Shown here one piece after another: positions 10,842-33,421 of a DNA stretch of 64,000 nt. The translations under genes were made by a program, and so were the position numbers. Within the stretch, counting starts at the first letter, position 1. Each line of letters opens with the position of its first letter. Under the pieces are notes generated by a model that was not told the origin of the DNA, made no database searches, and saw only the letters and a list, made by a program, of their open reading frames with translations. Where the stretch lies: assembly GCF_003248355.1 (NCBI RefSeq), contig NZ_QKWY01000001.1, positions 62,001 to 126,000 of the forward strand. Direction: 5' to 3'. This DNA is from Streptomyces sp. AC1-42W (GTDB lineage: Bacteria > Actinomycetota > Actinomycetes > Streptomycetales > Streptomycetaceae).

Positions 10842-11577
10842 TCAGACGGCCAGTTGGGCCGCGCCCCGCGTCGCGATCTCCTCGAACAGCTTGTCGTCCG
10901 GCACCGCCGCGTCGAACCCCGGCCCGTCGACGGGAACCGGGGCATGGATGACGATCTCGGTGAATCCCAGTTCCGCATGCCGGCCGGCGAAGTCCACGAA
11001 CGCGTCCACGGAGTCGAACGGCCGGTCCGCGCCCACCACGAGACGCGGGTTGAACTCCGGCGTGAACCCCGTGAGCAGCACCTTGTCCAGCTCCGCCACA
11101 TCCCGCCCGGCTTTCGCGCAGGCCCGGCCCAGGCCGTCCATCTGACGCGCGAGGGCGTCGAGCGACTGCGCGCCGCTCCCTTCCTCGTACAGCTTCGGAT
11201 CACCGGTGGTCACCCATGCCTGGCCGAGGCGCGCCGCGAGCGCGAGACCGCGCGGCCCGGTGGCGGCGACGGCGAAGGGAATCCGGGGCCGCTGTGCACA
11301 GCCGGGCAGGTTCCGCGCCTCGGTGGCCGCGTAGAACTCGCCCTCGTACGACATTCCGGCCGGTTCGCACAGCAGGCCGTCCAGCAGGGTGACGAACTCC
11401 CCGAAGCGGTCGGCCCGCTGCCGGGGCGTCCACGGCACCTCGTCGCCGCGCAGGAGCGTCGTCGCGTCGAATCCGTTGCCGCCCGCGCCGATGCCCAGCG
11501 TGATCCGCCCGCCCGAGATGTCGTCGAGCGTGATCAACTCCTTGGCCAGGGTGACCGGGTGGCGGAAGTTCGGCGAG
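10842..11577 (-). pseudogene. F420-type luciferase-like oxidoreductase, C-terminal part split by the element
   Basis: This is the 3' part of a luciferase-like, probably F420-dependent oxidoreductase, from SPNFRHPVTLAKEL to the stop. Its first 72 codons lie at 33204-33421, beyond the integrated element. Rejoining the two at the shared GAG restores one uninterrupted 316-codon reading frame through the motif TLVTSPNFRHPV. In the present state the fragment has no native promoter or start. An ATG just inside the element could in principle give a 246-residue product without the N-terminal strand and cofactor contacts. A full homologue of the same gene lies in the element at 26592-27494. Confidence 0.92.
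11575..11577. other. attL crossover core (GAG)
   Basis: The left junction lies where oxidoreductase sequence ends (TTCGGC-GAG) and element sequence begins (CCCAAGCCTTGCTC). The same GAG occurs at attR (33204-33206). The element-side arm 11580-11591 is CAAGCCTTGCTC, the partner of the right-end arm at 33189-33200 (GAACGAGGCTTG). The arms match at 10 of 12 positions as an inverted repeat centred on GA of the core. This geometry and the 2-3 bp core are typical of large serine integrases. Confidence 0.9.
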
Positions 11578-11605: not shown

Positions 11606-13039
11606 ATGCCCCGCCCCAAGCACCGAGAGCCGAGTATCACCCCAGGTGAACCGGCCGCCCTGTACTGCCGAATATCCCAGGCCGACGATGACGACCAGAC
11701 CGGCGTCGACCGGCAGGAACGCATCTGCCGGGAGATCGCCGAGCGCCGCGGCCTGGCCATCGACCCCGCCCACGTCTTCGTCGACAACAGCCGTTCCGCC
11801 TGGCGGCGCAACCGCAAGCGCCCCGGCTGGGACCAGCTCCTCGAACGAGCCCGGGGTCGCGAGTTCCGGCACATCATCGCGTACCACCCCGACCGGCTCA
11901 TGCGGCAGCCGCGCGACCTGGAGGAACTCCTCCAGGTCTCCGACGAGCAGGAGATCGTGCTGCACGGCGAGGCGAACCGCCGGAACCTCTCCGACCCCGA
12001 CGACCGGTTCATCCTCCGCATCGAGGTCGCCCACGCCTGCCGCTCCTCCGACGACACCTCCCGCCGCCTGAAGTCCGCGCTCGCGGAGCGGGCCGAGACC
12101 GGAATGCCGCACTCGGGCAAGCGGCGGTTCGGGTACGAGCCCGACGGCATGACCGTCAGGGAGGACGAGGCCGAGATCGTCCGCGAGGTCTTCGACCGCT
12201 ACCTCAAGGGCCAGAGTCCGGTCTCCATCGCCCTCGTCCTCCACAAGCGCGGCATCAAGACCGTGTATGGCAAGGAGTGGACCCAGGGCACCGTCCGGGC
12301 CCTGCTCGACTCCCGCCACGTCGCCGGTATCCGCATGCACCAAGGCGAGGAGGTCGGCGCCGGGAAGTGGCCCGCCATCATCGACGCCGGCACCTGGGCG
12401 GAGGTCCGCGCCCGCCGCGAGTACCGGTCCGCGATCCACCAGACCAACCTGGAGCTGCGCCGCTTCTACCTGCTGCGTGGCCTGGTCATGTGCAAGCGCT
12501 GCGGCACCCTGATGTCCGGTACCAAGGTCGGGGCCGTGCCCTCGTACCTGTGCACACGCAAGAGCCGCAACGACGAGAAGAAGTGCGTCCGCCGCATCGC
12601 CGCCGTGAAGCTGGAGGAGTTCGTTACCGAGGCCGCGATCGACCTGCTTGGCCGCCTCACCGTCTCCGGCCAACTCGCCTCTGCCACACCGACGAACGCC
12701 CTGACGGAGGCGGTGGAGGCTGACCAGCGGCAGCTCGCCGAGCTCAACCAGATGTGGACCGCCAAGGAGATCTCCACGGCGGAGTACCGGACGATGCGCA
12801 AGGACATCACCGACCGGATCGCCAAGGCCCAGCGGCGGATGGTTGTGCGGCCGGTGAAGCTGCTCGACGGACTCACGGGGCCGGGGGCCAGGGCTGCCTG
12901 GGAGGCCGACGAGATGACGGACGAGCGGCGCAACGCCGTGCTCCGCTTCCTCTTCTCCGGCGTGGTCATCGACGCGTCGAGCAAGCCGAGCGGAGTCTTC
13001 GACTGGGACCGCATCGACATCGAGCAGAACCAGCTCTGA
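11606..13039 (+). CDS. Large serine recombinase (integrase)
   Basis: This 477-residue integrase catalyses attP x attB recombination. The resolvase-type catalytic domain (residues 10-150) has the nucleophilic Ser in YCRISQADDD and the Arg-rich helix YHPDRLMRQPRDLEELL. A recombinase domain follows (SGKRRFGYEPDG, VREVFDRYLKGQSPVSIA). Then come a zinc ribbon with four Cys (CKRC near residue 295, and LCTRKSRNDEKKC) and a C-terminal coiled-coil region. The ATG is 29 bp inside attL. TACCAT at 11593-11598 could be a -10 element for a leaderless mRNA. The gene reads into the element. Confidence 0.95.
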   Translation: MPRPKHREPSITPGEPAALYCRISQADDDDQTGVDRQERICREIAERRGLAIDPAHVFVDNSRSAWRRNRKRPGWDQLLERARGREFRHIIAYHPDRLMRQPRDLEELLQVSDEQEIVLHGEANRRNLSDPDDRFILRIEVAHACRSSDDTSRRLKSALAERAETGMPHSGKRRFGYEPDGMTVREDEAEIVREVFDRYLKGQSPVSIALVLHKRGIKTVYGKEWTQGTVRALLDSRHVAGIRMHQGEEVGAGKWPAIIDAGTWAEVRARREYRSAIHQTNLELRRFYLLRGLVMCKRCGTLMSGTKVGAVPSYLCTRKSRNDEKKCVRRIAAVKLEEFVTEAAIDLLGRLTVSGQLASATPTNALTEAVEADQRQLAELNQMWTAKEISTAEYRTMRKDITDRIAKAQRRMVVRPVKLLDGLTGPGARAAWEADEMTDERRNAVLRFLFSGVVIDASSKPSGVFDWDRIDIEQNQL

Positions 13040-13479: not shown

Positions 13480-13593
13480 GCGGCCCCGGTGTTGGAGCAC
13501 CAAGGCCGCAGCGACTCCCAAGACGACCGCCCAAAACGATCTACACGGTGCCGGGACCTGCCAGTCCGTATCGGCCCGAGACAAGGAAGCTCT
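13480..13593 (+). repeat. Structured leader repeat, copy 2
   Basis: This is the second copy of the leader. GCGGCCCC, GGTGTTGGAGCACC (13488-13501), CGCAGCGAC, GACCGCCC and CGGTGCCGGGACCTGCCA line up in order with copy 1, and it ends in AAGGAAG just before GTG 13594. The 14-bp motif is identical in both copies and lies 99 and 106 bp from the two start codons. Confidence 0.65.
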
Positions 13594-15135
13594 GTGCCCC
13601 AGGGTACGACCCAGCAGTGGCAAGCACCATCCGCTCACTCCCACGCCGGCCCGCAGGACGCGATCGGCGTCACGGCCGCACCGCCTCACGACGCGGACGC
13701 CGAGGCAGCCGTGCTCGGGGCCTGCATGTTCCAGAGCGCGGTCATCGACGAGGTCCGGCACGTGCTGGAGCCGGGCGACTTCTTCCGGCCCGCGCACACC
13801 ACGATCTGGCACGCCCTGCTGGAGCTGCGCAGGCAGGAGGCGCCGACCGACGCGATCGCCCTGTCCCACCAGCTGAAGTCCACGGGCGACCTCACGCGCG
13901 TCGGCGGCCCCCAGTACCTGCATTCCCTGGCGACCTCGGCGGCCGTGGGGTCGGGTGCCTCGTACTACGCGGACATCATCCGTAGCCATGCCGATCTGCG
14001 CGTCCTGCAGGCCACGGCGGTCCGCGTGCTCCAGGGCGCCACCGCGCCGGGAGCTGACCCGGCCGAGGTACGAAGCCTGCTGGCGGCATCGCTGAGCGAG
14101 GCCGCCGACCGAGCCCGCCGCAGCTCGGGCGGGCGACTCCAGAGGTATGCCGTGGACGGCTGGTCGTTCGTCACCGACACCCCTTCCAGCACCGAGCCCG
14201 TGTGGGGGACGCCGGGAAAAGCGGCCTGGGCCTCGGGTGAAAGCCTGATGCTCGTCGGGCCACCAGGCGTCGGGAAGTCGACGATCGCCCAGCAGATCGT
14301 GCTCGCCCGTCTTGGCCTGCTCGCCCAGGTCCTGGATATGCCGGTGCGCGAGGGAGAGAAGGTCCTCTACATCGCCGCGGACCGGCCCAGCCAGCTCGCC
14401 CGTGCCTTCACCCGTGTCGTGCACCAGGCCGACCGGGACATCCTGCGCCAGCGCCTGGTCTTCTGGTCGGGACCGCTGCCCGCATCGCTCAACACCGAGC
14501 CGCAGCTTCTCGCCGAGCTGGCCGCCGAACACGGGGCCGACACCGTGGTGATCGACAGCCTCAAGGACGTGGTCGGCAAGCTCACCGACGACGAGGCCGG
14601 CCTCGCGTACAACAACGCCCGTCAGCAGCTCCTGCGCGACGGCGTCGAGCTTCTCGAACTGCACCACCAGCGCAAGCAGGGCCCCGACGCCTCGCGCACC
14701 CAGCGCCCTGTCCTCGACCAGGTCTACGGCTCGGCCTGGTTCACCGCAGGCGCGGGAAGCGTCCTGTTCCTCAGCGGCGCGGCCGGGGACCCGGTGGTCC
14801 ACCTCCACCACCTCAAGACGATCGACGACGAGATCGGCCCGCTGCCGGTCATCCACGACCACCCCCGTGGCACCTCGCGCGTCGATACGAGCCTCGACCC
14901 ACTGACCCTCCTGCGGCAGGCGGGCGCGAACGGGCTCACCGCCCGCCAGCTCGCCACCCAGATCACCGGCGAGGAGAAGCCCATCGCGGCGGACATCGCC
15001 AGGGCGAGGCGTCGCCTGGAGAACCTCACCAAGAGCGGACACGCCACCCAGGAGACCGGTGCCGGCGGTGGTACCGGGGGCGGCCAGGCGACCCGCTGGA
15101 AGGCCGTCACCCGCCACATGACCGCCGTTTCCTGA
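13594..15135 (+). CDS. DnaB-like replication protein (N-terminal DnaB domain plus RecA/AAA ATPase)
   Basis: In this 513-residue protein, residues ~25-160 resemble the DnaB N-terminal domain (DAEAAVLGACMFQSAVIDEV, YYADIIRSHADLRVLQATA). The latter matches the pattern of host DnaB at the end of this window (ASYYAEIVHERAVLRRL). An ATPase domain follows, with Walker A GPPGVGKST near residue 222 and Walker B TVVIDSLKD near residue 317. The C-terminal ~90 residues look winged-helix-like (LLRQAGANGLTARQLATQI). It probably unwinds or initiates at the element origin, perhaps the repeat region just downstream. The GTG start follows AAGGAAG; earlier in-frame codons lie in the leader. Confidence 0.82.
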   Translation: MPQGTTQQWQAPSAHSHAGPQDAIGVTAAPPHDADAEAAVLGACMFQSAVIDEVRHVLEPGDFFRPAHTTIWHALLELRRQEAPTDAIALSHQLKSTGDLTRVGGPQYLHSLATSAAVGSGASYYADIIRSHADLRVLQATAVRVLQGATAPGADPAEVRSLLAASLSEAADRARRSSGGRLQRYAVDGWSFVTDTPSSTEPVWGTPGKAAWASGESLMLVGPPGVGKSTIAQQIVLARLGLLAQVLDMPVREGEKVLYIAADRPSQLARAFTRVVHQADRDILRQRLVFWSGPLPASLNTEPQLLAELAAEHGADTVVIDSLKDVVGKLTDDEAGLAYNNARQQLLRDGVELLELHHQRKQGPDASRTQRPVLDQVYGSAWFTAGAGSVLFLSGAAGDPVVHLHHLKTIDDEIGPLPVIHDHPRGTSRVDTSLDPLTLLRQAGANGLTARQLATQITGEEKPIAADIARARRRLENLTKSGHATQETGAGGGTGGGQATRWKAVTRHMTAVS

Positions 15136-16153: not shown

Positions 16154-16243
16154 CGGTCCTCGTGACCGGTCGGAACCTCAAGACCCATTCCACAGGCCCA
16201 CAGCCCAAGCCAGCTCCTCAACCCCCTCTTGGAGAAACCGATC

Positions 16244-16975
16244 GTGATGCACGACCGCCACCCCGTCGGCACCCCCGGCACACGTCCGTCGCCGGCGAAG
16301 TCGTCTACGATCCTGGGCCGTTTGCGGCTGGCGTTCGGGCGGGCTGCTCCTGGCGGAGCCAGTAGTACCCCGAGTCCGACTCAAGGCCGGTCTTCGGGGA
16401 TCTCCGCCCCGGGGGTGGCGGAGACTGCCCGACGCCAGGGGGCGCCGGACCGGGAGGTCGGGACCGAGGGCGGCCCCGACCCGGACGAGCTCCACGTCGT
16501 CCAGCAGCAGATCCTTCGCCCCGCACCCGCCACCGTGCCGACAGCCGGCGAGCGAGCGGTGCAGAGCGTGCAGCCGGCGATTCGCCGTTTCACCGGTACC
16601 AAGCGGACCGTGCGCGTCGGCCCGCTGCGGTTCACCGGCGACGAGCACGCCAGCCTCCAGGAGGCTGCCGTCGAGCATGGTTACAAGGGGGAATCCGGCT
16701 TCGCCGCTGACATCGTCCTCGCCTTCATCACTGGCCGGTTCACGGCGAACCTGCCGCTGTCCGAGGACCGCCGCCGCACCCACATGTTCCGCGCCCAGGT
16801 GTTGCGCGAGCTCAACCGGATCGGCGTCAACGTCAACCAGGTCGCCCGCGCGCTGAACAGCGACCTCACCCCGCCCGACATCCGCCACCGTCTCGACGAG
16901 CTCCACCGCCTGCTGGAGCTGATAGCCGAGGCCCTGTGCGAACCCGCCGACGCCAGGAAGGACCGGGCAGCGTGA
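16244..16975 (+). CDS. MobC-like relaxosome accessory protein
   Basis: The C-terminal half of this 243-residue protein carries the MobC hallmark VLRELNRIGVNVNQVARALN near residues 185-205, with RFTGDEHASLQEAAVEHGY before it. This is a ribbon-helix-helix-like fold that helps the relaxase bind oriT. The first ~110 residues are Pro/Gly-rich and poorly conserved. I placed the start at GTG 16244, 8 bases after GGAGA; ATG 16247 is nearly equivalent. A TTG at 16229 would overlap the ribosome-binding site. The stop overlaps the relaxase start (GTGA), so the pair is translationally coupled. Confidence 0.85.
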   Translation: MMHDRHPVGTPGTRPSPAKSSTILGRLRLAFGRAAPGGASSTPSPTQGRSSGISAPGVAETARRQGAPDREVGTEGGPDPDELHVVQQQILRPAPATVPTAGERAVQSVQPAIRRFTGTKRTVRVGPLRFTGDEHASLQEAAVEHGYKGESGFAADIVLAFITGRFTANLPLSEDRRRTHMFRAQVLRELNRIGVNVNQVARALNSDLTPPDIRHRLDELHRLLELIAEALCEPADARKDRAA

Positions 16976-18684
16976 TCGCCGCCATCAAACCGGCTGGGTC
17001 CAACACCCGTGGCCTGCTCGCCTACCTCTACGGCCCCGGCCGCCATGACGAGCACGCCGACCCGCACATCGTCGCCGGCTTCGCCATGCTCGGCATGCCC
17101 GACCCCGGCCGCGCCCCGGACGCCACCCTCACCCGGCTTGCCCGCCACCTCGACGAGCCCGTCCATCTTCGGAACAGCGAGTTCGGCAAGAGGGTCACCG
17201 ATCACGTCTGGCACTGCCCCGTCCGCACCGCCCCCGAAGACCGGCGCCTCTCCGACGCCGAGTGGGCCGACATCGCCCAGCGCATCGTCGAAGCCGCCGG
17301 CATCGCCCCGCCCGGAGACGACCTCGGCTGCCGGTGGATCGCCGTACGCCACGCGGACGACCACATCCACATCCTCGCCACCACCGTCCGCGAAGACGGC
17401 CGCCGCCCCAGGCTCCACGACAGCGGCATCCGCGTCGGCGACGCCTGCCGCCAGATCGAGACCGACTACGGCCTGCGCCAGCTGAAGAAGGGCGACCGCA
17501 CCGCCGGACGCCGGCCCACCCAGGCCGAGATGCACAAGGCCCAGCGCCTCGGCTGGGAGCAGACCAGCCGCGACTGGCTCCAGGACCGCATCCGCGCCGC
17601 CATCCCCCACGCCAGCAACACAGAGGAACTCCTCGCCTACCTCGAAGCCGACGGCATCGCGATCAAACCCCGCCGCGGACCGTCCGGAGACCTCCTCGGC
17701 TACGCCATCGGCCGCCCCGGCGACCTCAACAAGGACGGCGAACAGATCTTCCACCCCGGCGGAAAGATCGCCCCCGACCTCACCCTGCCCAAGCTCAAGG
17801 TCCGCCTGGAGGCCACCACGCCGGAGGAGCACCCCACCGCCCGCCGCGACCAACCGGCCACTCCCTGGTACCAGGCCATCGACGCCCTCGACACTCTCCA
17901 CGCCGGCATGGCCGACGACACCCACGCCCAAGCCCACATCACCGCGCTCGGTGACCTCATCGAAGCCACCGCTCAGAAAGTCCCCGCCCACCTCCACGCC
18001 GAACTCGAAGCCGCATCAAGGGCATTCGGCCGCGCCCAGCGCTCCCAGATCCGCGCCGAGAACCAGGCCGCCCACACCCTGCGCCGAGCGGCCCGGGACC
18101 TTGCCCACACCACCACCGGCCCCGACAGCAGCGCCCTGGCAACCCTGCTCGCTGCCCTCGTCTGGGCCACGATCGTCGCTGCCCGCTGGCACGACGCGAA
18201 GAACCATGCCCACCAGTCCGAAGCCGCCCGGCAGACCCTCCACCACCTTCAGGCCGCCGCCGACCGGGCCCTCACGCCCGTCGTCGGCAGCCTCGCCACC
18301 CGCCGGCCGAACGATCAGGCCCTCTGGACCCTGGCCCACGATGTCCGGGCTGCCGTCCCCGACCACGCCGACCGCATCCTCACCGATCCCGCCTGGCCGG
18401 CCCTCGCCACCGTCCTCGCCGAAGCCGAAGCCGGCGGCCACAAACCCCACCAGCTCCTCAAGGAAGCTGCGGCCCAGCGTGAACTCACCACCGCCCGCCA
18501 ACCCGCCCGCGTCCTGATCACCCGCATCCAGCGCACCAGCCGCAACCCCGCACACAACCCCCGCGCCGAAGCCGCCCGCCGCCGCTCAACCCTCGTGTCC
18601 ACACATAGCGCACACCAGGCCCGAAACCCTCTCCCCTCCACGGCATCCGTGACCCCTACCGATCAACGCCACCGACGCCGCTGA
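16972..18684 (+). CDS. Relaxase/mobilization nuclease
   Basis: The N-terminal ~190 residues of this 570-residue protein form a MobA/VirD2-type relaxase domain. It begins IAAIKPAGSNTRGLLAYLYG and has the metal-binding histidines in WIAVRHADDHIHILATTVRED near residue 125; a second motif is GDACRQIETDYGLRQ. The C-terminal ~300 residues are Ala/His-rich helices, with one hydrophobic patch near residue 400 (LATLLAALVWATIVAARW). It would nick oriT for transfer by a helper conjugation system. The catalytic Tyr is not certain from sequence; YLYG near residue 20 is the best candidate. Confidence 0.85.
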   Translation: MIAAIKPAGSNTRGLLAYLYGPGRHDEHADPHIVAGFAMLGMPDPGRAPDATLTRLARHLDEPVHLRNSEFGKRVTDHVWHCPVRTAPEDRRLSDAEWADIAQRIVEAAGIAPPGDDLGCRWIAVRHADDHIHILATTVREDGRRPRLHDSGIRVGDACRQIETDYGLRQLKKGDRTAGRRPTQAEMHKAQRLGWEQTSRDWLQDRIRAAIPHASNTEELLAYLEADGIAIKPRRGPSGDLLGYAIGRPGDLNKDGEQIFHPGGKIAPDLTLPKLKVRLEATTPEEHPTARRDQPATPWYQAIDALDTLHAGMADDTHAQAHITALGDLIEATAQKVPAHLHAELEAASRAFGRAQRSQIRAENQAAHTLRRAARDLAHTTTGPDSSALATLLAALVWATIVAARWHDAKNHAHQSEAARQTLHHLQAAADRALTPVVGSLATRRPNDQALWTLAHDVRAAVPDHADRILTDPAWPALATVLAEAEAGGHKPHQLLKEAAAQRELTTARQPARVLITRIQRTSRNPAHNPRAEAARRRSTLVSTHSAHQARNPLPSTASVTPTDQRHRRR

Positions 18685-18726: not shown

Positions 18727-19296
18727 CTATTGCTCGTATGCCCACGCCCGGCCGGTCTGGCGGTACTCCTCCACGGGGATGGGAGCGACGCCCGTCCGCA
18801 TCCGTGCGGTGTAGAGCAGACCGTCGAGGTGGTCGATCTCGTGGTGGACCAGCCGGGCGAGCCCGCGTTCGTAGGTGGTCGTCACCAGCCGGCCCTCCAG
18901 CGTCGTGGTCTCCACGGTGATCCACAGCGGCCGGGGGACCAGGCCGCGGACGTCGAAGAACGACAGGCAGCCCTCGTACTGCTCGTCCTCGTCGCTGGAG
19001 CGGTCGGTGATCCGGGGGTTCAGCAGGACGATCGCCGGAGTCCCGGGGTCGGGGGGTTGGACCACGGCTGCGGCCCGGCCGATCGCGATCTGAGGGGCCG
19101 CGATGCCCATGCCCTTGGCGAACGGGTGGACCTGCCCGACGCGCTCCATCGCGGAGAACAACTGCTCGACGACCTGCTCGGCGGTCTCACGCTCGGCTGA
19201 CAGATCGAAGGCGCGGGCGGACTCGGCGAGAACGGGGGCGCCGTTCTGCACGACGCCAAGGCCGCGCATCTGCTCGCTGGGTCGCACCTGAATCAC
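18727..19296 (-). CDS. Peptide deformylase-type metalloenzyme
   Basis: This 189-residue protein has all three deformylase motifs: GMGIAAPQ near residue 64 (motif I), EGCLSF near residue 110 with the metal-ligand Cys (motif II), and HHEIDHLDG near residue 152 (motif III, HExxH). It should remove formyl groups from N-terminal Met. An element-borne copy could act on element or phage proteins or give tolerance to deformylase inhibitors such as actinonin. It is translationally coupled (4-bp overlap) to the upstream Xre regulator. It converges on the relaxase gene with only 42 bp between. Confidence 0.88.
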   Translation of the reverse strand: MIQVRPSEQMRGLGVVQNGAPVLAESARAFDLSAERETAEQVVEQLFSAMERVGQVHPFAKGMGIAAPQIAIGRAAAVVQPPDPGTPAIVLLNPRITDRSSDEDEQYEGCLSFFDVRGLVPRPLWITVETTTLEGRLVTTTYERGLARLVHHEIDHLDGLLYTARMRTGVAPIPVEEYRQTGRAWAYEQ

Positions 19297-26436: not shown

Positions 26437-26591
26437 GCCGGCACCAGGGTGATCGGCGGGCCCGGCCGCCACACTGAGACGGCTCCGGCGGGTGCCGCCC
26501 ACCTCGCACCAGACCGGATCGCCGCAGCGTGAAGGCGTCACGCTCCGGAGTCGCACGGGAACACCCCTGGGTCCGACGTAGGCTCGGTGGC

Positions 26592-27494
26592 ATGAGCCTG
26601 CGCCTGAGCACCGTGATCCTTCCCGTCGACCGCTGGCACGAGGGAGGCCGCGCGAAGTGGCAGCGCGCCGAGGAACTCGGCTTCCACGCCGCGTACACGT
26701 ACGACCACCTCTCCTGGCGGACCTTCCGCGACGGCCCCTGGTTCGGCGCCCTGCCCACCCTTACCGCCGCCGCCACGGCCACGGACCGCCTGCGCCTGGG
26801 GACCCTCGTCACGTCGCCTAATTTCAGGCATCCAGTGACGCTCGCCAAGGAGCTCATCTCGCTCGACGACATCTCCGGCGGGCGGGTCACCCTCGGCATC
26901 GGGGCCGGCGGCAACGGCTTCGACGCCACCGCGCTCGGCCAGGAGGCGTGGACGCCGAAGGAGCGGGCCGACCGCTTCGCCGAGTTCGTGCCGCTGCTCG
27001 ACCGGCTGCTCACCGAGGACGCGGTGACGGAGAGCGGCAGCTTCTACTCGGCCGACGAGGCCCGCAACATCCCCGGCTGCGTGGAACGCCCCCGGCTGCC
27101 GTTCGCGGTGGCGGCGACCGGCCCACGTGGCCTGAAGCTGGCTGCCTGCCACGGGCAAGCATGGGTGACGACCGGCGACCCGAAGCTGTACGAGACGGGC
27201 ACCCCGGAGCAGTCGGTGGAGGCGCTGCGCGGCCAGGTCGAGCGGCTCGGCAAGGCGTGCGCGGACGCTGACCGGGAGGTGGCCGGGCTGGACAAGATCC
27301 TGCTCACCGGCTTCACCCCGGACCGGGGCCGACCGCTGGAGTCCGTGGACGCCTTCGTCGACTTTGCCGGCCGCCACCAGGAGCTCGGCTTCACGGAGAT
27401 CGTGATCCACTGGCCGATCGCGGGCTCCGACTTCGCCGCCAACCAGGCCGTCTTCGACAAGATCGCCACGGAGGCCCTTACCCAGCTCGGCTGA
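26592..27494 (+). CDS. Complete LLM-class oxidoreductase: element-borne copy of the disrupted target gene
   Basis: This 300-residue luciferase-like, probably F420-dependent oxidoreductase is collinear with the two halves of the split chromosomal gene: the same LSTVILP start, AAYTYDHLSWR, SPNFRHPVTLAKEL, GIGAGGNGFDA, FAVAATGPRGL, AWVTTGDPKLYE and FVDFAGRH-ELGFTEIVIH. Conservation is high throughout, but the DNA differs much at third positions, so this is a diverged homologue and not a recent duplication. TAGGCT (26579-26584) lies 7 bases before the ATG, a leaderless arrangement. It probably supplies the function lost by insertion. Codons across the attB-equivalent are unusual (see 26811-26837). 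Confidence 0.9.
   Translation: MSLRLSTVILPVDRWHEGGRAKWQRAEELGFHAAYTYDHLSWRTFRDGPWFGALPTLTAAATATDRLRLGTLVTSPNFRHPVTLAKELISLDDISGGRVTLGIGAGGNGFDATALGQEAWTPKERADRFAEFVPLLDRLLTEDAVTESGSFYSADEARNIPGCVERPRLPFAVAATGPRGLKLAACHGQAWVTTGDPKLYETGTPEQSVEALRGQVERLGKACADADREVAGLDKILLTGFTPDRGRPLESVDAFVDFAGRHQELGFTEIVIHWPIAGSDFAANQAVFDKIATEALTQLG
26811..26837 (+). other. Synonymously recoded attB-equivalent inside the rescue copy
   Basis: The codons for TSPNFRHPV here are ACG TCG CCT AAT TTC AGG, then CAT CCA GTG. The rejoined chromosomal gene has ACC TCG CCG AAC TTC CGC, then CAC CCG GTC. Seven of nine codons differ with no amino-acid change, and CCT, AAT, AGG, CAT and CCA are rare in this genome. Codons on either side are again GC-ending, so the change is confined to the region the integrase would bind. 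Confidence 0.8.
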
Positions 27495-28303: not shown

Positions 28304-31300
28304 ATGAACCGCAAGGCAGCGAACAGCGACGAGGGAGCCGGTCGTGACCTGCTGGAGTCCGGACTGGCCCTGCTGCGGAACGACTTACCTGCCAGTACTT
28401 CCGTAGAGATCGTTAAGTCGCTTGCGGGCGGTTACACCGATGCCCGGGTGATGCTGTGCGACATTGGCCATGAGCCGGGTCGCGGCTCTGACGGCGTCCC
28501 AAGTGGCCAGCACATCTTGAAGGTGGGGTTCTCCACCGGCCGACTCCAGGCTGCAGCCCACAATGCCTTCACCACGGGCCTTGGCGAGTTTGGGCAGACC
28601 CGTGTTCCGCAACTAGTTCAGTCGCTCCAGGGACCCGGCACTAGCGTCGACATCTACGACATCGCAGGGTTCAGTCTCAACCGGTTGCGCTCGGCCGACT
28701 ATGTCGATGCAGAGGACCGCGAGGAGATCCTTGCCCGGGCATCCCGGGAACTACTGAGTGCTCAACTTGCCGTCGCAGGCCCGCCGAACTACCAGGGCAC
28801 AGTGGCCACAGTGCTGCGCGAATGGCTTGGAGGCGACTTCCCTGACAACCAGCGCGGCTCCCGCGTCCGTGAGGTCTTCAACCAACTTCATGGGACGGGT
28901 CGCGTCTTTCGTCACGAGGGCGAACTCCTGCCGGATCCTCTCGTCCTACTGGACCTCGACCTCGGCTTGTCCGGCCGTGACCTGGCGTGCTTCCGCGGAC
29001 CGACCCACGGCGATCTCCACTTGCGCAATGTCCTGGTCCGGGGCTCCCGCCTAACCCGGGACCTCACCTACTGGCTGATCGACGTCAACTGGGACACACC
29101 CACACCGCTCCTGTACGACCATGCGTACCTGGAGCTGTCCGCGCTGCTGTTCGGACTGGGCGCGTCCACGAGCGGCCGGGTGCTGCCCCTGCTCGCCCGG
29201 CTTGACGAAGAGGGCGTGACGGTCCCTGTCGAACTGGACTTCAACGACTCCGGGCTCGTCAACCTACTCCGTCGAATCCGCCGTGAGACTGAGAGCGTAC
29301 TGACCGCGCGCGAGCAGAAGCGGGTGGACGTCTGGCGGCAGCAGATGCTCATGGCCCGGATCGCCGCGGGCCTCAACTGGGCTGCCAAGCCTCTCGACGA
29401 CATGTCCCAGCGTCGCGCCGCTCTAGCCAGCGCGGGTTGGGCAGCCCGCCTTCTCCTGCGCGAGCGTCACCCGGAGGTGTGGGTCAACATCGCAAAGGAG
29501 GAGCGGGTTGGAGCCGTCGGCCTGGCCACCAGCGCAAGTGCCACCCCGGTCACTGCGCAGGAAGCCCTGCGTCGCTGGAAGCCGTTTCGGCAGACACACG
29601 GGGCCATGGACCTCTATCTCGTCGCCGACGGCGTGGCCGCCACACGCGAACTGGCCGCGCTCGCGCACTGCGGCTGGGCGACGGTGATCGATCTCGATCC
29701 AGACAGCGACAGCAACGGCCTGTCCCGTGTCGTCGTTCCGGAGCTCGCGGAACGACGACACGTCAGTGTCTTCGGCAGCAACCGAGTACCGGTCCCGCCG
29801 GATAACGCCACGAACTGGCTGATGGCGAACGGCTGGACTACGCACGACGAGCCGACCGCAGACTCCGACGACCAGTGGCGGCGGCGGGGTTACCTGCAGC
29901 GCGTGCGGCAGTTGGTCGACGAGACACACGCTGGTACCCCGCATCAGTCCGCAGCCGTCCTGGTCCTGCGCTCCGGGCGGCGTGACCGGGAGATCGGGCG
30001 TGTGATCGACTACATCGACGAGAAGTACGACGGCCTCGCCGAGCGTCTCGATCTGGCGCAGGCCCCCGCCATCAACGGGATCGACATCGAAGCGTTCCTC
30101 ACCGTGGTCGCCGAGTCATTGCCACCAGACGGGAGTGCCTCGACACCTTCATTGCCCGGAATCAACGGGCGACGCTGGACGCTCAACTGGTCAGATCTGC
30201 ACCGGCTCTCGGTCGACTTGGAAGTACTGCACTCCGAGCTCCTTTCCGACAGAGAGTCCGCCCAGCAGCTGACGGATGAGTTCTGGCGTGGTCGACCGCC
30301 GTCCTGGCAGGAACTGGAAGTACCGGTCGACGTCTCACGAGACGCCTACCCCGGCCTGTGGAAGGAAATCAACCAGCGTCTCAGTGACCACCAGCTAGCC
30401 ATCGTCCATCTCGACCATTCCCCGGGAGCTGGCGGCACGACACTGTCTCGTCGCGTGGCTTGGGACTTGCACCGCACCTATCCGACCGTGCTTCTGCGCA
30501 ACTACTCGGAGACCACGGCAGATCGCATCGACGAGATCTATCAGGAGACTGGACATCCCGCACTCGTGGTTGCGGAGTCGGCAATACTTCCAGACTACGA
30601 CCTCGACGAACTGGTCCATTCCCTGGCACAGCGGAACACCCGCGCCGTGCTGCTGTGGGTGAATCGCACGAACGTGGGCGACAGCGGCAACGGGCACAAG
30701 CTGCTCGACCCGCTGCAGGGCCCGGAACGGGAACGTTTCCTTAAGACATTCAAGGAGCGCGCGGAAACCGATCGGGCGCGCCGGCTCCTGGATGGCTTGG
30801 CCGAGGGAGCCACCGATGTTGTGGCCGCACAGAAGCTCTCGCCGTTCTTCTTCGGCTTGTGTGTGTACGAGGATCAGTTCGAAGGCATCGCTTCGTATGT
30901 GCACAACCATTTCGCTGGACTGACCCGGGAGCAAAGGGAGCTCGCCCGTCATCTGGCGCTGCTCACCCGATACGGGCAGGAACTCGGCCTACCGATCGTC
31001 ATGGTCGAGGCATGGCTGGGGCGCGAACGGCCTGTCTACTCACCTCTGACCGACGCTGAGCTCAGCGAACTCCTTGGCCCAGACCTGCGCCACCTGGTGG
31101 TTACGGAGCGAGGTGCCCTGAGGCTGCTGCACCCTCTCATCGCGGAGCGCGTCCTGATGGGCGAAGTTGATGGAGAGCGCTACAGCCTCGGCAACATCTC
31201 AGTGGACTTCATCAGGAAGACGACAGCGCTGCTCGGTCCCGAGAACAGAACGACGAAGCACCTGCTGAACGAGCTGTTCATCCGGCGCACCAACTCGTCC

Positions 31301-33118
31301 ACGGACGGTAGGTCGGACAACTTCTCGGAACTGATTGAGGCCATGTCCGTGGAGGCCGGCGCGGAGGTATTCGAGGTACTCACCACTCAGTGCCCGAACA
31401 ACGCGCACTTCTGGAACCATCGGGGCCGATACGACATTTACAAGGTCAAGGCGGACTTCGGCCGAGCCGAGAGCTTTGTACTCAAGGCTGTGGAGAAGTC
31501 CCATGGCCGAGACGCCACCCATCTGCACACTCTGGGGATGGTTCGCCGGTTCTGGATCGAGAACAAGCTCAACCAGCTGCTCCGGGACGGCGAACGCCAC
31601 ACGCCGGAAGAGCTGCTCGCGTCCGTCGAGCCGCTGTTCGACCGAGCGATGGAAGCCTTCACCGACGCCGGTAAGTACAAGAACACGGACTACACGTGGT
31701 CCACCCCCATCCAGCTGATCGCGACCGTTGTGGAACGCCTCAGGCAAGCCTCGGGCGAGGAGAGCCTTGCAGAGTTCATGGAGGGCGATGACCCCACGGC
31801 CGTATGGGTGACCGAGCAGATCGGGCGGGCCGAGGAGCTGCTAGACAATCTCCGCAACATCAATGCCGAAGGCAAGTACTATCGACGGCTCGATCAACGG
31901 CTGACCGTGCTCTACGGAGACGTCGAACGGCTGGTCGAGCAGTGGCAGGAGCTGCGCCGTCGCGGCGACAGCCCCGACGTAGACCTGACCATCGCCCGGA
32001 CCCTGTACGCGAAGGCCGGGCGGGACTGGTCGCAGCTGACCGAGGAGCAAGCGCGGACCATTGCTGAGATGGCGGAAGGGCCGGTTAATAGTGGCCAGGC
32101 CACCGACGCCGACCTGCGGTTGTGGTTCCAGTCCTACCGTAGGCTCCCCGAATACTCCGAGACTCACACCCTTGAGCGGCTCGCGTGGTTCGCCTCCGAG
32201 CACAACAGCCTCGACGCGAACTACTATCTCTATATCCTGCACTTCCTCATCTGGCGGCGGGGGGACGCGCAGGACGAGGAGCGTGTCCGCTACTACCTGG
32301 AGGAATGCAAGCGTCTGAGCCGTCAGCACCGAAGGCAGTGGAGCTTTGAGTGGCTCGGTGGCAGCACACGCCCGCATCCGCTGGTGCACTTCAGCGAAAT
32401 GGGCCGGCAGCGCCACGGGCCTTCGGGCTTCTGGAGTCACCCGCAGGAGCTGGTACGCGTCAGCGGGATCATCGAGGAGATCAAGAGTCCTCAATCCGGA
32501 CGACTGAGGATCACTGGAGGTCAGTTGTCGGCCTTCTTCACTCCCCGAAATCGGTTCCGGCAGACCAGTGGCGTCAATGAGTCCGTCGAGTTCTACCTCG
32601 GTTTCAGCTACGAGGGACTCCGAGCCTGGGAACCTACGCTTCCCGGAGAGACGCCTGACGCGCTGATCAACGCGGAGCCACCCAAGGTATCCGCGCCCTT
32701 GGCCACGTCGAGTGCGGTCAACCAGTCAGTCCTCGCCCCTGCGGATGGAGCGTCGATGCCTAATCCGGAACCTGAACCGCAGCCGGATGAGTCAGAGTCT
32801 GTGCCCATGGTGCCTGCCGGTCCCGATCCCTATCGGGTCGATCCGGCGGTGCTGCGTTCGCTCGCCGCCCGTCAGCGCGGCCCCGGAGGGGCTGAGGACT
32901 TCCAGCGAGCCATTCACGATCTTCTGAAGCAAGCCCGCGGGGAGGAACGCCGCCTGACCTCGTTGGAGTTGGGCAAAGCGTTGCAGACCCTGTTCGGGAT
33001 GGATGCCTACAACAAGTTCCGCAGGGAGAAGGGGAGAGGAAAGCTGAAGCTCGCCGTCGAGACTCTTGGCTTCAGGACCCTACCGACCCCGCAAGGATTC
33101 GACGTCGACCTTCCCTAA
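28304..33118 (+). CDS. Giant APH-like kinase / SAMD9-like P-loop NTPase fusion (candidate defence protein)
   Basis: This protein has 1604 residues. Residues ~25-390 form an APH/choline-kinase-like phosphotransferase: Gly loop SLAGGYTDA, Lys in HILKVGF, catalytic THGDLHLRN near residue 234 and metal-binding Asp in WLIDVNWDTP near 259. Residues ~420-620 form an alpha/beta domain of unknown family. Residues ~690-960 form a STAND-like NTPase with a P-loop HSPGAGGTTLSRRVAWDL near 705, where the usual Lys is Gly as I recall for SAMD9, ending in a winged-helix-like LGPDLRHLVVTERGALRLLHPLIAERVL. Then come helical TPR-like repeats (~1030-1370), an OB-like segment (~1380-1450, VRVSGIIEEIKSPQSGRLRI), a Pro/Glu linker and a basic C-terminal ~85 residues. 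Codon 28 is TTA. The gene is less GC-rich than its neighbours. There is no membrane segment. Confidence 0.75.
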   Translation: MNRKAANSDEGAGRDLLESGLALLRNDLPASTSVEIVKSLAGGYTDARVMLCDIGHEPGRGSDGVPSGQHILKVGFSTGRLQAAAHNAFTTGLGEFGQTRVPQLVQSLQGPGTSVDIYDIAGFSLNRLRSADYVDAEDREEILARASRELLSAQLAVAGPPNYQGTVATVLREWLGGDFPDNQRGSRVREVFNQLHGTGRVFRHEGELLPDPLVLLDLDLGLSGRDLACFRGPTHGDLHLRNVLVRGSRLTRDLTYWLIDVNWDTPTPLLYDHAYLELSALLFGLGASTSGRVLPLLARLDEEGVTVPVELDFNDSGLVNLLRRIRRETESVLTAREQKRVDVWRQQMLMARIAAGLNWAAKPLDDMSQRRAALASAGWAARLLLRERHPEVWVNIAKEERVGAVGLATSASATPVTAQEALRRWKPFRQTHGAMDLYLVADGVAATRELAALAHCGWATVIDLDPDSDSNGLSRVVVPELAERRHVSVFGSNRVPVPPDNATNWLMANGWTTHDEPTADSDDQWRRRGYLQRVRQLVDETHAGTPHQSAAVLVLRSGRRDREIGRVIDYIDEKYDGLAERLDLAQAPAINGIDIEAFLTVVAESLPPDGSASTPSLPGINGRRWTLNWSDLHRLSVDLEVLHSELLSDRESAQQLTDEFWRGRPPSWQELEVPVDVSRDAYPGLWKEINQRLSDHQLAIVHLDHSPGAGGTTLSRRVAWDLHRTYPTVLLRNYSETTADRIDEIYQETGHPALVVAESAILPDYDLDELVHSLAQRNTRAVLLWVNRTNVGDSGNGHKLLDPLQGPERERFLKTFKERAETDRARRLLDGLAEGATDVVAAQKLSPFFFGLCVYEDQFEGIASYVHNHFAGLTREQRELARHLALLTRYGQELGLPIVMVEAWLGRERPVYSPLTDAELSELLGPDLRHLVVTERGALRLLHPLIAERVLMGEVDGERYSLGNISVDFIRKTTALLGPENRTTKHLLNELFIRRTNSSTDGRSDNFSELIEAMSVEAGAEVFEVLTTQCPNNAHFWNHRGRYDIYKVKADFGRAESFVLKAVEKSHGRDATHLHTLGMVRRFWIENKLNQLLRDGERHTPEELLASVEPLFDRAMEAFTDAGKYKNTDYTWSTPIQLIATVVERLRQASGEESLAEFMEGDDPTAVWVTEQIGRAEELLDNLRNINAEGKYYRRLDQRLTVLYGDVERLVEQWQELRRRGDSPDVDLTIARTLYAKAGRDWSQLTEEQARTIAEMAEGPVNSGQATDADLRLWFQSYRRLPEYSETHTLERLAWFASEHNSLDANYYLYILHFLIWRRGDAQDEERVRYYLEECKRLSRQHRRQWSFEWLGGSTRPHPLVHFSEMGRQRHGPSGFWSHPQELVRVSGIIEEIKSPQSGRLRITGGQLSAFFTPRNRFRQTSGVNESVEFYLGFSYEGLRAWEPTLPGETPDALINAEPPKVSAPLATSSAVNQSVLAPADGASMPNPEPEPQPDESESVPMVPAGPDPYRVDPAVLRSLAARQRGPGGAEDFQRAIHDLLKQARGEERRLTSLELGKALQTLFGMDAYNKFRREKGRGKLKLAVETLGFRTLPTPQGFDVDLP

Positions 33119-33203
33119 ACCCGTGCTTTCAAAGGGTGGGTGCACGCGCCCCGTAGGGACTGTTGCCGCAGGTCAGGCTGCGATAGGTGAACGAGGCTTG
33201 ACT

Positions 33204-33206
33204 GAG
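33204..33206. other. attR crossover core (GAG)
   Basis: The right junction: element sequence (GAACGAGGCTTGACT, 33189-33203) ends here and oxidoreductase sequence resumes (GTGACGAGCGTGCC). The core is identical to attL. The 85 bp between the giant gene's stop and this core contain no gene; they include the attP half-site. Confidence 0.9.
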
Positions 33207-33421
33207 GTGACGAGCGTGCCGAGGCGGAGGCGTTCGGTGGCGGCAGCGGCGGCGGTCAGTGTGGGCAGTGCGCCGAACCACGGGCCGTCCCGGAAGGCCC
33301 GCCAGGACAGGTGGTCATAGGTGTAGGCGGCGTGGAAGCCCAGCTCCTCGGCGTGCCGCCAGCGCTCGCGGCCTCCCTGGTTCCAGCGGTGGATCGGCAG
33401 AATCACGGTGCTCAGTCGCAT
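33204..33421 (-). pseudogene. F420-type oxidoreductase, N-terminal 72 codons split off by the element
   Basis: This fragment encodes MRLSTVILPIHRW through RLRLGTLVTS and then runs out of homology nine codons into the element (VKPRSPIAA, stop). It keeps the native ATG; TAGGGT upstream suggests a leaderless promoter. The rest of the gene is at 10842-11577. The 82-residue product would lack most of the TIM barrel. Confidence 0.92.

What the first reader, a model, noticed from the sequence alone, without database searches (positions are those of the whole stretch)
26592..27494. Integrative element carries a recoded rescue copy of the gene it disrupts
The element splits an LLM/F420-type oxidoreductase gene and carries a full homologue. 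Within that copy, the codons spanning the attachment site (26811-26837) differ synonymously at seven of nine positions from the host gene, with rare A/T-ending codons (CCT, AAT, AGG, CAT, CCA) found just there, while flanking codons are ordinary. The simplest reading is a copy that restores function and escapes the element's own integrase. I know partial gene restoration by phages (replaced 3' or 5' ends). A full, selectively recoded spare is, to my knowledge, unusual.
Basis: partly seen in the sequence, partly recalled or inferred. Interest (0 to 1): 0.95.

Follow-up and report, generated by a model that had tools for sequence, protein, structure and literature searches.

The report
Mobile element carries recoded rescue gene
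A family of Streptomyces mobile DNA elements sits inside one near-universal enzyme gene, splitting it, and carries a complete spare copy whose DNA spelling differs at the insertion site without changing the protein there, so the spare likely restores the lost enzyme and is predicted to escape the element's own integrase.

Summary
A ~21.6-kb element (11577-33205) with a large serine integrase and relaxase genes splits an LLM-class oxidoreductase gene and carries a full homologue in which codons 74-82 differ synonymously from the host at 7 of 9 positions. The window pair alone is weak evidence (p = 0.036). The family makes it strong: 20 of 20 genomes found with this integrase (or its remains) and a split gene also hold a full-length copy. 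In 23 element copies versus 94 native genes, codon 76 is CCT/CCA in 21 vs 2, 79 is AGG in 18 vs 1, 81 is CCT/CCA in 12 vs 0; rare-codon excess peaks at codons 73-81 of 300. Copies are under purifying selection. The only copy with an internal stop lies in a genome whose native gene is intact. A sister integrase clade splits an aminotransferase gene and also carries a full copy with altered site codons. Best reading: a rescue gene with a disabled attachment half-site. Integrase escape and in-vivo rescue are inferred, not shown. Closest precedent: tRNA-dependent lysogeny; the protein-gene, site-recoded version appears new.

The parts
10842..11576 (-). host LLM oxidoreductase gene, 3' part (codon 75 of copy numbering to stop), begins at attL
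   Evidence: tblastn; stop coordinate
11575..11576 (-). crossover dinucleotide TC at attL
   Evidence: junction comparison
11606..13039 (+). large serine recombinase (integrase), 477 aa
   Evidence: Pfam Resolvase, Recombinase, Zn_ribbon_recom
13489..15135 (+). DnaB-like helicase N-terminal domain protein
   Evidence: Pfam
16229..16975 (+). MobC-like mobilisation protein
   Evidence: Pfam
16936..18684 (+). MobA/VirD2-type relaxase
   Evidence: Pfam
26579..26584 (+). TAGGCT, -10-like motif just upstream of the copy's ATG
   Evidence: same motif before the start in 17 of 20 element copies (G313 apart) and 7 of 16 natives compared; promoter function inferred
26592..27494 (+). full-length rescue copy of the LLM oxidoreductase, opposite in orientation to the host gene
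26811..26837 (+). recoded attB-equivalent (codons 74-82); recoding concentrated in codons 76-82
28304..33118 (+). 1604-aa protein with STAND NTPase and weak TCAD9 matches (cargo at the right end)
   Evidence: Pfam
33204..33205 (-). crossover dinucleotide TC at attR
33204..33421 (-). host LLM oxidoreductase gene, 5' part, ends at attR and runs into an early stop in the element (ORF 33173-33421)

Best explanation
This integrative element splits a near-universal Streptomyces oxidoreductase gene and carries its own complete copy with a synonymously recoded attachment site, which likely replaces the lost enzyme and is predicted to be a poor substrate for the element's integrase. Shown: the split gene, the full copy, the local recoding, the recurrence in 20 genomes and the purifying selection. 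Inferred: (1) the integrase recombines attP with attB inside the LLM gene at the TC in the Ser75 codon; (2) the copy is expressed from its own upstream motif and restores activity, so integration costs little; (3) recoding of the right half-site weakens integrase recognition, so neither the excised circle nor a sibling element integrates into the spare; (4) copies were taken from, or re-converted by, more than one host lineage while the recoded patch was kept or rebuilt. A sister integrase clade with another target (a PLP aminotransferase gene) has the same arrangement.
For: Split host gene, complete copy and TC core. All 20 genomes found with this integrase (86-100% identity; in G417 an 83% fragment) and a split LLM gene have both halves and a full-length copy. 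Copies (23) vs natives (94): 76 CCT/CCA 21 vs 2; 77 AAT 17 vs 3; 79 AGG 18 vs 1; 81 CCT/CCA 12 vs 0; 74 not ACC 23 vs 12; two or more recoded codons at 76-81 22 vs 5. Rare-codon excess per 9-codon window peaks at 73-81: 0.391; outside windows mean 0.036, sd 0.036, largest 0.212. Against a profile of used sites (31 left, 19 right half-sites) 23 of 23 copies score below the native 5th percentile; right half 25.9 vs 40.0. A CCT/CCA site pattern hits 15 of 392 Streptomyces genomes: 12 known element copies, G313 (a remnant without a close integrase), and G144 and G345, which have one full-length gene and no half genes. The gene is in 195 of 199 genomes, once in 189 of them at that cut-off. Median dN/dS 0.17 among 22 copies, 0.21 among natives. 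22 of 23 copies have no internal stop; the exception, G414, has an intact native gene. Where this integrase is a fragment or absent from the locus (G417, G075, G408, G313) the copy is still open. 22 copies as one clade rejected, p 6.6e-5. Sister clade: C-half, integrase, full-length copy, N-half in 7 of 7 elements fetched; site codon GTT in 12 of 12 of its copies vs 1 of 69 natives, and the gene's top rare-codon window.
Against: No integrase assay; escape is inferred. The TC core is unchanged in 23 of 23 copies, and the left half-site is not significantly recoded (p 0.058). 4 of 94 natives score below the best copy on the site profile. One split host gene (G025) itself has AGG CAT in its right half-site, so those two codons alone do not block integration. 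Recoding is mild in some copies (G397, G399: 2 rare codons of 10; natives have 0-2). Codon column 90, outside the site, is also strongly divergent. Copies partly share ancestry: only 2 copy/native contrasts fall on strongly supported branches, too few for a sign test. The pattern search misses one known copy in its sample (G358, CCG at 76). In the aminotransferase clade, copy vs own N-half shows no clear excess at the site (15 of 36 vs 421 of 1194; two of seven rows misaligned), codon divergence is as high at the gene's start, some copies also change amino acids beside the site, G415's copy reads in two frames, and G080, an aminotransferase insertion with no hit to this integrase at the cut-off, lacks GTT. 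Expression and enzyme activity are unknown.
Confidence: 0.82

Rival explanations
1. The copy is ordinary cargo: a horizontally acquired LLM homologue whose site codons happen to be A/T-ending through drift, a foreign donor, or incomplete amelioration.
For: The window copy is only 66-79% identical to the host halves in protein, and some copies are richer in rare codons overall (up to 52 of 290, G358; native mean 17).
Against: Rare-codon excess peaks at the attachment site; the largest window elsewhere is about half as high. 20 of 20 split-gene genomes have the copy, while the gene is single in 189 of the 195 genomes that have it. Copies nest among Streptomyces natives at more than one place.
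Confidence: 0.05
2. The copy does rescue the gene, but the codon patch serves something else (a binding site, RNA element, or an old recombination scar) and not escape from the integrase.
For: The patch is partly shared by descent (AGG in 18 of 23, ACG in 21 of 23), as a conserved motif would be. The TC core is kept.
Against: The patch varies between copies (CCT, CCA; AAT, AAC; AGG, CGT, CGC; CCA, CCT, CCG, CCC), lies on the right half-site, and a sister clade with another gene has altered codons at its own site.
Confidence: 0.1
3. Recoding mainly prevents homologous recombination between the copy and the host halves, not integrase action.
For: Copy and host gene lie in inverted orientation and recombination would cause inversions.
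Against: A 20-30-bp patch adds little to the gene-wide divergence (1060 of 3186 synonymous differences after the site), and it sits on the crossover site.
Confidence: 0.03

Closest known systems
tRNA-dependent lysogeny of mycobacteriophages (Guerrero-Bustamante and Hatfull 2024, PMC10865867; abstract, section list and passages seen)
   Same: Integration destroys a host gene, and the element carries a complete functional replacement needed for integrants to survive.
   Different: tRNA gene, tyrosine integrase, phage. Here a protein gene, serine integrase and a non-phage element with relaxase; the replacement is recoded at the attachment site. No site recoding of the phage tRNA was seen in the passages read.
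WHO homing elements of yeasts targeting FBA1 (eLife 2020, PMC7282813; passages read)
   Same: A selfish element targets a conserved enzyme gene and brings sequence that makes the gene resistant to the element's own enzyme.
   Different: Only a 3' fragment is supplied and it replaces the gene's 3' end in place after a double-strand break; no separate full-length gene.
Genomic islands and IMEs that restore the gene they enter (review PMC5704250; also PMC12884075; passages read)
   Same: The cost of integration is lowered by keeping the target gene functional.
   Different: In the review one end of the gene is kept through the att repeat, and serine-recombinase IMEs are said to disrupt dispensable genes; here a nearly universal gene is disrupted and replaced in trans.
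Synthetic Cleave-and-Rescue gene drives (PMC7951863; search listing and start of abstract only; details recalled)
   Same: An enzyme disrupts a gene and a recoded resistant copy rescues it.
   Different: Engineered, eukaryotic, nuclease-based; here natural, bacterial, and disruption is by integration of the element itself.

Membership tests
Integrative and mobilizable element (IME) | site-specific recombinase with attL/attR at the ends | tested here: met
   large serine recombinase; split gene with TC core at both junctions
Integrative and mobilizable element (IME) | relaxase and mobilisation genes | tested here: met
   MobC and MobA/VirD2 relaxase by Pfam
Integrative and mobilizable element (IME) | no type IV secretion genes of its own | tested here: inconclusive
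   no such Pfam hit among the 20 ORFs scanned (19 of them in the element), but not every ORF of the element was scanned
Integrative and mobilizable element (IME) | mobilised by a helper element | not testable with these tools
   needs mating experiments
Gene-restoring island (3' or 5' end replaced at the junction) | target gene ORF restored across attL or attR | tested here: not met
   at attR the 5' part runs into a stop after 82 codons; at attL the 3' part lacks the first 74 codons; the full copy is elsewhere
Replacement-gene-dependent integration (as in tRNA-dependent lysogeny) | element carries a complete gene for the function it destroys | tested here: met
   full-length copy in 20 of 20 split-gene genomes; on the same contig between the halves in 14
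Replacement-gene-dependent integration (as in tRNA-dependent lysogeny) | the replacement is required for integrants to survive | not testable with these tools
   the gene is in 195 of 199 genomes; essentiality unknown
Homing element with resistant target (WHO type) | resistant fragment joined to the target gene in place by homing | tested here: not met
   separate full-length gene with its own upstream region

The most novel reading that the evidence does not exclude
A natural 'disrupt and rescue' selfish system in bacteria: a large clade of serine-integrase elements in Streptomyces takes over near-universal host genes, each subfamily pairing its integrase with a full, site-disabled replacement of its own target (LLM oxidoreductase, PLP aminotransferase), so that the host becomes dependent on the element and the spare outlives the element after the integrase dies.
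Probability: 0.45. Interest if true: 0.9.

Novelty: new variant of a known kind. Interest (0 to 1): 0.82.

Why it matters
It shows how a mobile element could occupy the middle of a conserved protein gene, a site that should be costly, by bringing its own replacement made resistant to its own integrase. That would explain why such internal sites are usable, how hosts become dependent on elements, and how element genes take over housekeeping roles. The recoded copies also mark which att bases probably matter for recognition, so the specificity of a new serine integrase clade can be read from sequence and tested directly. It gives a natural counterpart to engineered cleave-and-rescue designs.

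Tried and rejected
Rejected: chance or codon drift (site peak far above the rest of the gene); a native hot spot (no peak in native vs native); recoding of both half-sites alike (left half-site p 0.058); a CTC core (L042 attR has CTTC, so TC); copies as one clade.

A search for duplicates within 10 kb of the sister-clade integrases found none; in the 7 elements fetched later the copies lie about 14-51 kb from the integrase.

Full report
What is there. The window lies in a 7.6-Mb genome (G000:C1:62001-126000) of the same genus group as records named Streptomyces. A gene for an LLM-class (luciferase-like, Pfam PF00296; best NCBIfam hits are F420-dependent subfamilies, below their cut-offs) oxidoreductase is cut in two on the minus strand: the 5' part at 33421-33204 and the 3' part at 11576-10842. 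Between them lie about 21.6 kb with a large serine recombinase next to the left junction, a DnaB-like protein, MobC, a relaxase, sugar- and methyl-transferase genes, a NUDIX gene, a STAND NTPase, and, on the plus strand at 26592-27494, a complete 300-aa homologue of the split gene. The junctions read ...GTCACC|TC|AGTCAAGCC and ...AAGGCTTGGGC|TC|GCCGAAC. A related element (L042) has ...GTGACT|TC|AGTC at its right junction, so the shared crossover dinucleotide is TC, the first two bases of Ser75 in copy numbering. The attP arms read from the two junctions, AGGCTTG / CAAGCCT, are inverted repeats, as expected for a serine integrase (sequence; expectation from general knowledge).

The observation. 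Codons 74-82 of the copy differ synonymously from the host at 7 of 9 positions. In this one pair the contrast with the rest of the gene is modest: 6 of 7 at codons 76-82 against 66 of 150 after them, p = 0.036.

Other elements. The integrase was sought in 392 Streptomyces genomes (33 with E <= 1e-60) and in a species-level genome collection (28 loci). Counting the window, 20 genomes have this integrase (86-100% identity; some truncated, frameshifted or cut by a contig end; in G417 only an 83% fragment) and a split LLM gene. In 20 of 20 both halves and one full-length copy are present. In 14 of them all three lie on one contig, with the copy between the halves. In the other six (G393, G394, G397, G398, G400, G409) they are spread over two contigs, so the order is not fully shown. 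In the 15 where C-half and copy share a contig, the copy is opposite in orientation to the host gene and 0.5 to 44 kb from the integrase. Three further genomes have the recoded copy without this integrase at the locus (G075, G408, G313). In G414 the integrase is truncated, the host gene is intact elsewhere, and the copy has an in-frame stop: the one genome where the spare is not needed is the one where it has decayed.

Is the recoding site-specific? Twenty-three copies (the 20, plus G075, G408 and G414; G313 was found later and is not in these counts) were aligned with 94 intact native genes. Residues 75-82 (SPNFRHPV) do not vary in these 117 genes, but the codons do: 76 is CCT/CCA in 21 of 23 copies and 2 of 94 natives; 77 AAT 17 and 3; 79 AGG 18 and 1; 81 CCT/CCA 12 and 0; 74 is not ACC in 23 and 12. 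Across 9-codon windows, the excess of rare codons in copies over natives is highest at 73-81 (0.391), against 0.036 (sd 0.036, largest 0.212) for windows away from the site. Codon-usage divergence ranks columns 74, 76, 79, 90, 77, 73, 81 first of 256 informative columns; column 90 lies outside the site and is unexplained. Copies against their own host C-halves (19 pairs; G397, G408, G409 and G414 were not in this test): 81 of 132 at 76-82 and 1060 of 3186 at 83-300. Copies against nearest natives: 110 of 207 at 74-82 and 1405 of 5300 elsewhere. Natives against nearest natives: 168 of 846 and 4240 of 22996, so there is no natural hot spot. A pattern for the recoded site hit 15 of 392 genomes; 12 were known element copies, one (G313) a remnant without a close relative of this integrase, and two (G144, G345) genomes with one full-length gene and no half genes at E <= 1e-15. 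It missed one known copy, G358, which has CCG at codon 76.

Which part of the site? A profile was built from half-sites at real junctions: 31 left half-sites from attR-like junctions, some of them old and partly decayed, and 19 right half-sites from attL junctions. 23 of 23 copies score below the 5th percentile of natives. The loss is in the right half (mean 25.9 against 40.0); the left half is not clearly different (32.1 against 33.7, p 0.058). The TC core is intact in all 23 copies; it sits in a TCN serine codon that cannot lose TC by a single synonymous change. Four natives score below the best copy. One split host (G025) has AGG CAT in its right half-site, so those codons alone are tolerated.

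Function of the copy. The gene is present in 195 of 199 Streptomyces genomes at E <= 1e-100, with one match in 189 of them. Copies evolve under purifying selection (median dN/dS 0.17 over 231 pairs of 22 copies; 0.21 over 400 sampled native pairs). A TAGGCT motif stands shortly before the ATG in 17 of 20 copies and 7 of 16 natives compared; the other three copies and most of the other natives have a near variant, and the copy of G313 has none there. That it is a promoter is inference. Where the integrase is a fragment or absent from the locus the copy is still open (G417, G075, G408, G313). In G313 only a short fragment of the host gene was found near the copy, so the spare appears to be the only close LLM gene there.

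Origins. On a tree without codons 68-87 the copies are clustered but do not form one clade; holding 22 of them together (without long-branched G410) is rejected, p 6.6e-5. A second test, of six copies from large-genome hosts, did not reject their unity (p 0.51). Only two copy/native contrasts fall on strongly supported branches, so the number of independent recodings cannot be fixed. Either the spare was acquired more than once and recoded each time, or host sequence keeps replacing the body of the copy while the patch is kept. Both readings need selection on the patch.

A second target gene. Twelve loci with integrases at about 75% identity share another left-flank gene, the 3' part of a PLP aminotransferase (NF005855). 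In 7 of 7 elements fetched the order is C-half, integrase, full-length aminotransferase copy, N-half; the G415 copy reads in two frames there, as does its integrase. In these the copy has the same orientation as the host gene and lies 0.1-3.3 kb inside the right end, unlike the LLM copies. The codon before the GlyTrp at the site is GTT in 12 of 12 of the clade's copies (11, G402) and in 1 of 69 natives. The glycine codon three before it is GGA/GGT in 10 of 12 copies (11 of the clade, G415 left out as split, plus G080) against 6 of 69. The top rare-codon window of that gene is at the site (243-251). Against this: codon divergence is as high at the gene's start, some copies also change amino acids just after the site, copy vs own N-half shows no clear excess (15 of 36 vs 421 of 1194, with two of seven rows misaligned), and G080, a further aminotransferase insertion with no integrase hit at the cut-off, lacks GTT. 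So the architecture recurs with a second gene; the recoding in this clade is well supported at two codons only.

Prior work. Eight answered searches of the held library showed, in the listings seen (in only the first 25 of 54 and 15 of 116), no description of a full-length, site-recoded spare carried by an integrative element. The nearest are tRNA-dependent lysogeny (PMC10865867, abstract and passages), WHO homing elements (PMC7282813, passages), and gene-restoring islands (PMC5704250 and PMC12884075, passages). A survey of Streptomyces conjugative elements (PMC9513070, passages) did not mention it in the passages seen. Most subscription papers and bioRxiv preprints are outside this library.

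Verdict. Observation confirmed. Rescue by a full copy: very likely. Recoding as escape from the integrase: likely, untested. New variant of a known kind (replacement-gene-dependent integration), with features not seen in the precedents read: a protein gene, a serine integrase, an attachment half-site altered by synonymous change, and two unrelated targets.

Noticed in passing
L099-L100 (G392), L108-L109 (G290), L121-L123 (G401), L106-L107 (G057), L114-L115 (G358): Several elements have two or three 5' halves of the LLM gene, many ending in an attR-like junction, but only one 3' half. The stretch between two halves is 98% identical in G057 and G358, so it seems to travel with the element. Mechanism unexplained; repeated insertion and repair or nested excision are possible.
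   Followed up: partly
L028-L033 (upstream of the integrase): A third integrase group (53-55% identity) shares another left-flank gene fragment (looks like a small membrane protein, by eye); PF00893 hits were not near it, so target and any copy are unknown.
   Followed up: partly
L022-L026, L038: A fourth integrase group (about 48-58% identity) shares yet another short left-flank similarity.
   Followed up: no
L348 (G080): An aminotransferase gene split into N-half and C-half with a full-length gene between, in a genome with no hit to this integrase at E <= 1e-60: perhaps another integrase using the same target.
   Followed up: no
window 28304-33118: 1604-aa STAND NTPase/TCAD9 protein at the element's right end; no PADLOC hit; possibly a defence gene.
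   Followed up: partly
window 18727-19296: Peptide deformylase gene inside the element; a similar reading frame, judged by eye, lies near the decayed left end of the G075 element.
   Followed up: no
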